A DNA stretch of 64,000 bases from Candidatus Altimarinota bacterium. Its GTDB lineage: Bacteria > Patescibacteriota > Gracilibacteria > UBA4473. The stretch spans positions 124,001 through 188,000 of the forward strand of contig JAHDHX010000001.1 in assembly GCA_020631075.1 (NCBI GenBank), given 5' to 3'. Below the pieces are notes generated by a model that searched no databases, had not been told where the DNA came from, and worked only from the letters and a program-made list of their open reading frames with translations. The first letter of the stretch is position 1; each line of letters begins with the position of its first letter. The position numbers and the translations under genes are program-made. This document shows positions 1,676-1,882 of the stretch, in pieces.

Positions 1676-1759
1676 ATGAAAACTCAAACGCTTTGTTACA
1701 CTCCTCAAACAGCTGCCCAGTGCGGTTGGTTTGCGTTTGCGTATTATTGGTTTGCCTGA
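1676..1759 (+). CDS. putative aromatic-amino-acid leader peptide (attenuator), MKTQTLCYTPQTAAQCGWFAFAYYWFA*
   Basis: Short ORF read directly: ATG...TGC GGT TGG TTT GCG TTT GCG TAT TAT TGG TTT GCC TGA; lies just upstream of DAHP synthase and is followed by hairpins and a U-tract. Confidence 0.72.
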   Translation: MKTQTLCYTPQTAAQCGWFAFAYYWFA

Positions 1760-1760
1760 A

Positions 1761-1854
1761 GAGGGCTGAGACACTGAAGTTAGCACTGACTTCTCTTACG
1801 CTCAGTCACTCTGCCCACTGACCTCCTCCTCGCGGGGGGTTCATTTTTGTTTTT
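1761..1854 (+). promoter_or_regulatory. candidate transcription attenuator in the DAHP synthase leader
   Basis: Stem candidates GGGCTGAG(1763-1770)/CTCA(1801-1804)+GCCC(1813-1816), GAAGT(1776-1780)/ACTTC(1789-1793), then ACCTCC(1821-1826)/GGGGGT(1835-1840) followed by TCATTTTTGTTTTT. Confidence 0.6.
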
Positions 1855-1882
1855 ACACCTTATTTTTTCACCCCCTTGCCCA

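What the first reader, a model, noticed from the sequence alone, without database searches (positions are those of the whole stretch)
1676..1882. Multi-aromatic leader peptide and attenuator in front of DAHP synthase
Seen directly: a 27-codon ORF, MKTQTLCYTPQTAAQCGWFAFAYYWFA*, sits 13 nt after trpF and about 120 nt before the DAHP synthase start. The last ten residues WFAFAYYWFA contain 2 Trp, 3 Phe and 2 Tyr. After its stop come competing stems (GGGCTGAG 1763-1770 with CTCA/GCCC at 1801-1816; GAAGT/ACTTC) and a terminator-like ACCTCC/GGGGGT hairpin followed by TCATTTTTGTTTTT. Established: ribosome-stalling leader peptides rich in the product amino acid control trp, phe and his operons in Proteobacteria by attenuation, and DAHP synthase is the shared entry step to Trp, Phe and Tyr. 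Inference: one leader senses all three aromatics. A ribosome at the stop codon (1757-1759) would cover 1761-1770, block the upstream stem and allow the terminator; stalling in the aromatic run would leave the stem free. I do not know of such a leader described in CPR-type bacteria.
Basis: partly seen in the sequence, partly recalled or inferred. Interest (0 to 1): 0.88.

Follow-up and report, generated by a model that had tools for sequence, protein, structure and literature searches.

The report
Pan-aromatic leader peptide controlling DAHP synthase
Just ahead of the first enzyme of aromatic amino acid synthesis, this ultra-small (CPR-type) bacterium encodes a 27-residue peptide packed with tryptophan, phenylalanine and tyrosine; its relatives carry the same kind of peptide followed by an RNA switch that should stop transcription unless the ribosome runs short of those amino acids, a classic control scheme for which I found no report in this branch of life.

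Summary
The ORF (1676-1759, MKTQTLCYTPQTAAQCGWFAFAYYWFA) and the terminator before the DAHP synthase gene are real, and the only clean hit of their kind in 64 kb. The strongest evidence is comparative. Of 83 class genomes with this enzyme, 28 loci have an ATG-started aromatic-rich leader directly upstream, and five more loci have one at the head of the operon. A terminator is predicted after 33 of 34 leaders scored. In 25 of 33, folding predicts that a ribosome on the aromatic codons suppresses the terminator and a ribosome at the stop restores it. The switch falls within one codon of the end of the aromatic run in 21 of 25 (3.7 expected). Leaders of genomes with tryptophan synthase alpha always contain Trp codons (11/11); leaders without Trp occur only in genomes lacking it. 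Most have a promoter whose -10 box ends 7-12 nt before the ATG, implying near-leaderless translation.

Weak point: in the window itself the switch is poorly resolved.

Precedent: the C. glutamicum AroR leader (Phe-Tyr-Phe) before aroF. Verdict: new variant of a known kind.

The parts
1637..1642 (+). -35-like box TTGTCA inside the 3' end of trpF
   Evidence: Promoter scoring upstream of all leaders; TTGTCA-17-TAGAAG, 9 of 12 matches, shuffle P 0.02. Relatives have TTGACA at the same place. The stricter scan did not list it.
1660..1665 (+). -10-like box TAGAAG overlapping the trpF stop codon, ending 10 nt before the leader ATG
   Evidence: spacing shared with most family-f1 and f5 relatives (7-12 nt). 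Implies a start point a few nt before the ATG (inference).
1676..1759 (+). leader ORF, 27 codons, MKTQTLCYTPQTAAQCGWFAFAYYWFA*
   Evidence: Direct reading; shuffle P 0.001; same kind of ORF at the same place in relatives
1727..1753 (+). sensing run of codons W F A F A Y Y W F
   Evidence: Direct reading; matching runs such as FFYFWF, FFFWFFPYFY, FFGAYWYPF in relatives
1760..1812 (+). long hairpin right after the stop codon (1760-1770 with 1801-1812, inner stem 1776-1782 with 1787-1793)
   Evidence: MFE structures. Its 5' arm would be covered by a ribosome at the stop codon. It does not overlap the terminator.
1749..1752 (+). GGTT, predicted to pair with the terminator base GACC (1820-1823) when the ribosome is on the first three aromatic codons; weak candidate antiterminator
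   Evidence: mean effect not above shuffled controls, 18 of 60
1820..1854 (+). intrinsic terminator: hairpin 1820-1841 and U-tract TTTTTGTTTTT 1844-1854
1883..2935 (+). DAHP synthase, AroFGH class I; the controlled gene
   Evidence: PF00793 2.1e-46, TIGR00034 4.7e-80
1033..1662 (+). trpF, last gene of the upstream trp operon
   Evidence: PF00697 3.1e-27
263..1036 (+). trpA
   Evidence: PF00290 1.5e-59, TIGR00262 2.5e-52

Best explanation
The element is a ribosome-mediated transcription attenuator for DAHP synthase, the entry enzyme of the shikimate pathway. A promoter just upstream starts an RNA that opens with the leader ORF. When charged tRNA for Trp, Phe and Tyr is plentiful, the ribosome reaches the stop codon, covers the antiterminator 5' arm lying at the end of the ORF, and the terminator forms. 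When one of these tRNAs is short, the ribosome stalls in the aromatic run, the antiterminator forms over the 5' arm of the terminator, and RNA polymerase reads into the gene. Shown by sequence and comparison: ORF, aromatic run, promoter-like boxes, terminator, conservation, and predicted mutually exclusive folds in most relatives. Inferred: actual stalling, termination in vivo, the response to each amino acid. Not shown for the window itself: a strong antiterminator.
For: Aromatic-rich ATG ORFs precede the orthologous gene in 28 loci of the class, across families f1, f15, f5, f23 and f14, in AT-rich and GC-rich genomes and in genomes where TGA is read as a sense codon. In five more loci (L084, L085, L092, L093, L096) the leader heads the operon in which the gene lies, so the leader follows the function and not one gene junction. 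Folding with the ribosome at each codon: mean P(terminator) 0.44 on aromatic codons, 0.96 at the stop, 0.88 for shuffled leaders, Wilcoxon P 8e-9, n=33. In 25 switching leaders the transition lies within one codon of the last aromatic codon of the run in 21, against 3.7 expected. Trp codons in the run against tryptophan synthase alpha: W+/TrpA+ 11, W+/TrpA- 6, W-/TrpA+ 0, W-/TrpA- 16; Fisher P 9e-5, not corrected for relatedness. The own genome carries TrpA, prephenate dehydratase and prephenate dehydrogenase. No Rfam family matches here.
Against: In the window the terminator arm pairing only falls from about 0.70 to 0.24-0.33, and only for the first three aromatic codons; the G-run stays in a local hairpin (0.95 or more) in every state, and 18 of 60 shuffles do as well. 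About a quarter of the relatives (L007, L010, L012, L061, L074 and others) also show no switch, mostly because their terminators are very stable. Six leaders keep Trp codons in genomes without detected TrpA. No expression data were available, and the thermodynamic model ignores cotranscriptional kinetics.
Confidence: 0.85

Rival explanations
1. The hairpin with U-tract is simply the terminator of the trp operon, and the ORF is a chance reading frame in a spacer.
For: In the window the terminator lies directly after trpF, and its switch is not better than shuffled sequence.
Against: In relatives the gene is often a lone transcription unit far from trp genes, next to prfA-like or rsmA-like genes, yet has the same leader and terminator. 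Shuffle P for the window ORF is 0.001. Only one such hit in the window.
Confidence: 0.05
2. The peptide is a nascent-chain arrest peptide or a functional microprotein, so the residues matter and not the codons or tRNA charging.
For: Hydrophobic aromatic peptides can interact with the exit tunnel (general knowledge). Runs such as FFYFWFRASEQ are conserved as residues within one genus.
Against: Residue order and the N- and C-terminal parts vary freely between genera while aromatic density stays; the Trp content follows presence of TrpA; the fold switch is placed at the end of the codon run.
Confidence: 0.04
3. The leader is real, but in the window species control is by translation or by read-through of the upstream trp operon and not through an antiterminator; the leader has drifted and only tunes a constitutive partial terminator.
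For: Weak predicted switch in the window; long GC-rich hairpin between stop codon and terminator, unlike relatives. A TrpR gene with an operator-like palindrome heads the trp operon.
Against: Promoter-like boxes, aromatic run and terminator are all kept.
Confidence: 0.2
4. A riboswitch or T-box with an incidental ORF.
For: Riboswitches and T-boxes control aromatic genes in Firmicutes (general knowledge).
Against: No Rfam match to any T-box or riboswitch in the window; sequence outside the ORF is not conserved between genera while the leader logic is.
Confidence: 0.01

Closest known systems
Corynebacterium glutamicum aroR-aroF attenuator (PMC11802643, PMC4046766; citing Neshat et al. 2014)
   Same: A leader peptide with consecutive aromatic residues (Phe-Tyr-Phe) in front of a DAHP synthase gene, reported to raise transcription when Phe is limiting.
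   Different: Actinobacterium; short F-Y-F run without Trp. Here up to 9 aromatics in 10 residues, often all three kinds, in Patescibacteria. Sequence homology between the two was not tested.
E. coli trpL and pheL attenuators
   Same: Short ORF with product codons, antiterminator against terminator, ribosome at the stop codon permits termination.
   Different: Each senses one amino acid and controls a terminal branch (trpEDCBA, pheA); E. coli DAHP synthase genes are controlled by repressors such as TrpR (PMC11802643) and TyrR (general knowledge).
Legionella leaders before the homologous DAHP synthase gene (found here)
   Same: ORFs ending ..FFYFSFFSPxLGGR followed by a CCCCCAG..CTGGGGG terminator about 290 nt before the gene; P(terminator) switches at the aromatic run in several.
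   Different: Phe and Tyr only, longer ORF (35-36 codons). I found no publication on them, but older closed literature could not be searched.

Membership tests
Ribosome-mediated transcription attenuator (leader-peptide type) | Short translated ORF with a run of codons for the pathway's end products | tested here: met
   Window ORF and 33 further leaders; translation itself not shown
Ribosome-mediated transcription attenuator (leader-peptide type) | Intrinsic terminator between leader ORF and first structural gene | tested here: met
   1820-1854 in the window; in 33 of 34 leaders scored
Ribosome-mediated transcription attenuator (leader-peptide type) | Antiterminator that excludes the terminator and is masked by a ribosome at the stop codon | tested here: inconclusive
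   Met by prediction in 25 of 33 leaders; in the window only a weak 4-bp competitor, not above shuffles
Ribosome-mediated transcription attenuator (leader-peptide type) | Expression rises when the cognate aminoacyl-tRNA is short | not testable with these tools
   Needs expression data
AroR-type attenuator of DAHP synthase (C. glutamicum) | Aromatic leader directly before a DAHP synthase gene | tested here: met
   PF00793 / TIGR00034 gene 123 nt after the leader
AroR-type attenuator of DAHP synthase (C. glutamicum) | Common ancestry of leader or RNA | not tested
   The C. glutamicum leader was not fetched; leader sequences of distant taxa are not alignable
T-box or known riboswitch / Rfam leader family | Match to the covariance model | tested here: not met
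   Only two tRNAs in the whole window at gathering scores

The most novel reading that the evidence does not exclude
A widespread pan-aromatic attenuator class of Patescibacteria in which one near-leaderless leader ORF reads Phe, Tyr and Trp supply together and gates the entry to the shikimate pathway, with its codon set edited by evolution to match the aromatic pathways the cell still has (Trp codons absent only where Trp synthesis is absent), and which also operates in lineages that read TGA as a sense codon.
Probability: 0.5. Interest if true: 0.72.

Novelty: new variant of a known kind. Interest (0 to 1): 0.6.

Why it matters
A 2010 survey (PMC2965389) knew leader-peptide attenuators only from Proteobacteria and Actinobacteria and added Firmicutes; my literature searches found none described in the Candidate Phyla Radiation. 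If right, transcription and translation must be coupled closely enough in these tiny cells for a ribosome to steer RNA polymerase, and amino acid sensing there needs no protein regulator. The many natural variants, with and without Trp codons, form a ready comparative series on how a sensor's specificity follows loss of a biosynthetic branch.

Tried and rejected
First scans read '-' strand matches in the wrong orientation because genome-search loci are not reverse-complemented; searches are void for those loci (spurious FYFYPFFFG in L004) and were redone. A single-protein scan of genome contigs found nothing; an alignment query worked. Searches failed on coordinates. Searching for an equivalent leader before trpE gave none: trpE is headed by trpR. 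Classical covariation analysis was not done because leaders align only within genera; the ribosome-position folding test with shuffled controls replaced it. Scans of other residue sets (His, Leu, Ile/Val, Trp alone) across the own genome gave background-like numbers and were not pursued. The phylum-wide sample gave few further DAHP synthase genes of this type.

Full report
What is there. The window starts inside trpB and continues trpA, trpF, a 220-nt spacer, and a class I DAHP synthase gene. Chance is a poor explanation: 3 of 3000 shuffles of the spacer reach 7 aromatics in 10 residues, the window has one such ORF with hairpin and T-run on either strand, and 978 kb of the genome hold only nine ATG ORFs with 6 or more aromatics in 10.

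Who it belongs to. The genome (1.46 Mb, 96% complete) belongs to a class whose members include genomes reading TGA as a sense codon. The nearest named relatives are Candidatus Gracilibacteria MAGs, with Peregrinibacteria and Peribacteria further out. The closest available DAHP synthase is 55-58% identical, so no same-genus comparison was possible.

Conservation. 83 of 361 class genomes carry the enzyme. Reading upstream in the right orientation gives leaders such as MRNQFFFANYFYFLATAG, MKIFAFDFFYFWFRASEQN, MKKNFFSYFFFRWTT, MSHIFLFFWSFYFPTVSRVSA, MQRYFYGFYFWTGSRR, MYNTFFFWFFPYFYTK, MTHSGIFFGAYWYPFSAGKVLLRLS, MNASKYISFGFYFFFFREMLKD. Where no leader stood directly before the gene, wider stretches of 14 loci were searched; in five of them an aromatic leader with a terminator lies further upstream on the same strand, consistent with an operon head (L084 MNALNFFYFFFNSDSVGLF, L085 MNSFFYFWSYFYSVQPGERS, L092 MAHTFFFNSFYYFAPQRGL, L093 MQHSVNTFGYYFWNFNNVKA, L096 two leaders). 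Peribacteria loci have one before a gene that begins like aroA.

Promoter. Upstream of most leaders in families f1 and f5 stands TTGACA-16/17-TANNNT with the -10 box ending 7-12 nt before the ATG and almost never a Shine-Dalgarno sequence. The transcript should begin a few bases before the start codon, so the leader ORF is probably translated in leaderless or near-leaderless fashion (inference). In most of families f14 and f23 the -10 box lies about 27 nt upstream. The window has TTGTCA-17-TAGAAG at 1637-1665, inside the end of trpF.

Switch. For each leader the RNA downstream of a ribosome (footprint 13 nt beyond the first base of the A-site codon) was folded up to the U-tract for every codon. 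In L019 the terminator probability is 0.00 on F, F, Y, W, Y and 0.98 on the last F; in L013 it is 0.00 through the run and 0.97 two codons later; in L236 0.00 on W F Y F Y and 0.95 two codons later. Over 33 leaders: 0.44 on aromatic codons, 0.96 at the stop, 0.88 for leaders with the intervening RNA shuffled; Wilcoxon P 8e-9. The transition codon is within one codon of the last aromatic codon of the run in 21 of 25 switching leaders, against 3.7 expected; footprints of 10 and 16 nt give 13 and 16. The antiterminator 5' arm thus lies where a ribosome at the stop codon covers it, as in the trp and phe attenuators of E. coli.

The window itself is the weak case. With the ribosome on W1727, F1730 or F1736 a GGTT:GACC helix competes with the base of the terminator, leaving a shorter hairpin separated from the U-tract by UUCA; from Y1742 onward this competitor is covered. 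The mean effect is not better than shuffles (18 of 60). Either the model misses the real fold, or the switch has drifted in this species.

Function of the codon choice. Tryptophan synthase alpha was sought in all 361 genomes. Every leader from a TrpA-positive genome has Trp in its run (11 of 11); 16 leaders without Trp in the run all come from genomes without TrpA; six leaders have Trp although TrpA was not found, four of them in family f5 (Fisher P 9e-5 without correction for relatedness). The own genome has TrpA, prephenate dehydratase and prephenate dehydrogenase, in keeping with a leader that uses all three aromatic codons.

What is known. C. glutamicum AroR (Phe-Tyr-Phe) before aroF is the precedent (PMC11802643, PMC4046766). 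A 2010 survey states that leader-peptide systems were then known only from Proteobacteria and Actinobacteria and adds Firmicutes (PMC2965389). Searches for leader peptides or attenuation in CPR bacteria returned nothing relevant; closed-access papers could not be searched. During this work Legionella species also turned out to have Phe/Tyr leaders before the homologous gene, so DAHP synthase attenuation is broader than CPR.

Verdict. A real, conserved ribosome-mediated attenuator of the shikimate entry step, new in its lineage and in combining all three aromatics; the mechanism is the classical one. Confidence is high for the class, moderate for full function in the window species.

Noticed in passing
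L031:15110-15434 (own genome, about 4.9 kb upstream of the window): The trp operon is headed by a trpR gene (PF01371, 2e-18), overlapping trpE, with the palindrome TTGTACTGGTTTATCGGTACAA near its promoter, much like the E. coli trp operator. TrpR control of trp genes plus a leader-controlled DAHP synthase would be a two-layer system in a CPR bacterium.
   Followed up: partly
L203, L209, L210, L214, L219, L221, L223, L230, L231, L238 (Legionella and Fluoribacter): Conserved 35-36-codon ORF ending in FFYFSFFSPxLGGR or close to it (FYFSFF in L230) with a strong terminator about 290 nt before the DAHP synthase gene; several show the same predicted ribosome-gated switch.
   Followed up: partly
L227 and L236 (Peribacteria), L200 (Kaiserbacteria, 1.6 kb upstream of the DAHP synthase gene): Aromatic leaders far upstream of the DAHP synthase gene; in Peribacteria the gene right after the leader begins like aroA (EPSP synthase), so a whole shikimate operon may be under this control.
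   Followed up: partly
L096 (positions 2672 and 1596, minus strand): Two aromatic leaders about 1 kb apart in one locus (MPVQTFTFGFYAFPFSAGQEPMCLN and MAHRQSYFYGFFFTPYLAGKEPYDLK); the first had no terminator by the scoring used.
   Followed up: no
L019, L044, L048, L051 (family f5): Leaders contain Trp codons although no tryptophan synthase alpha, prephenate dehydratase or prephenate dehydrogenase was listed for these genomes; what the chorismate is used for there is unexplained.
   Followed up: no
window 8359-9417, minus strand: 352-aa protein with tandem GYYPPQG-type Pro/Tyr/Gln repeats.
   Followed up: no
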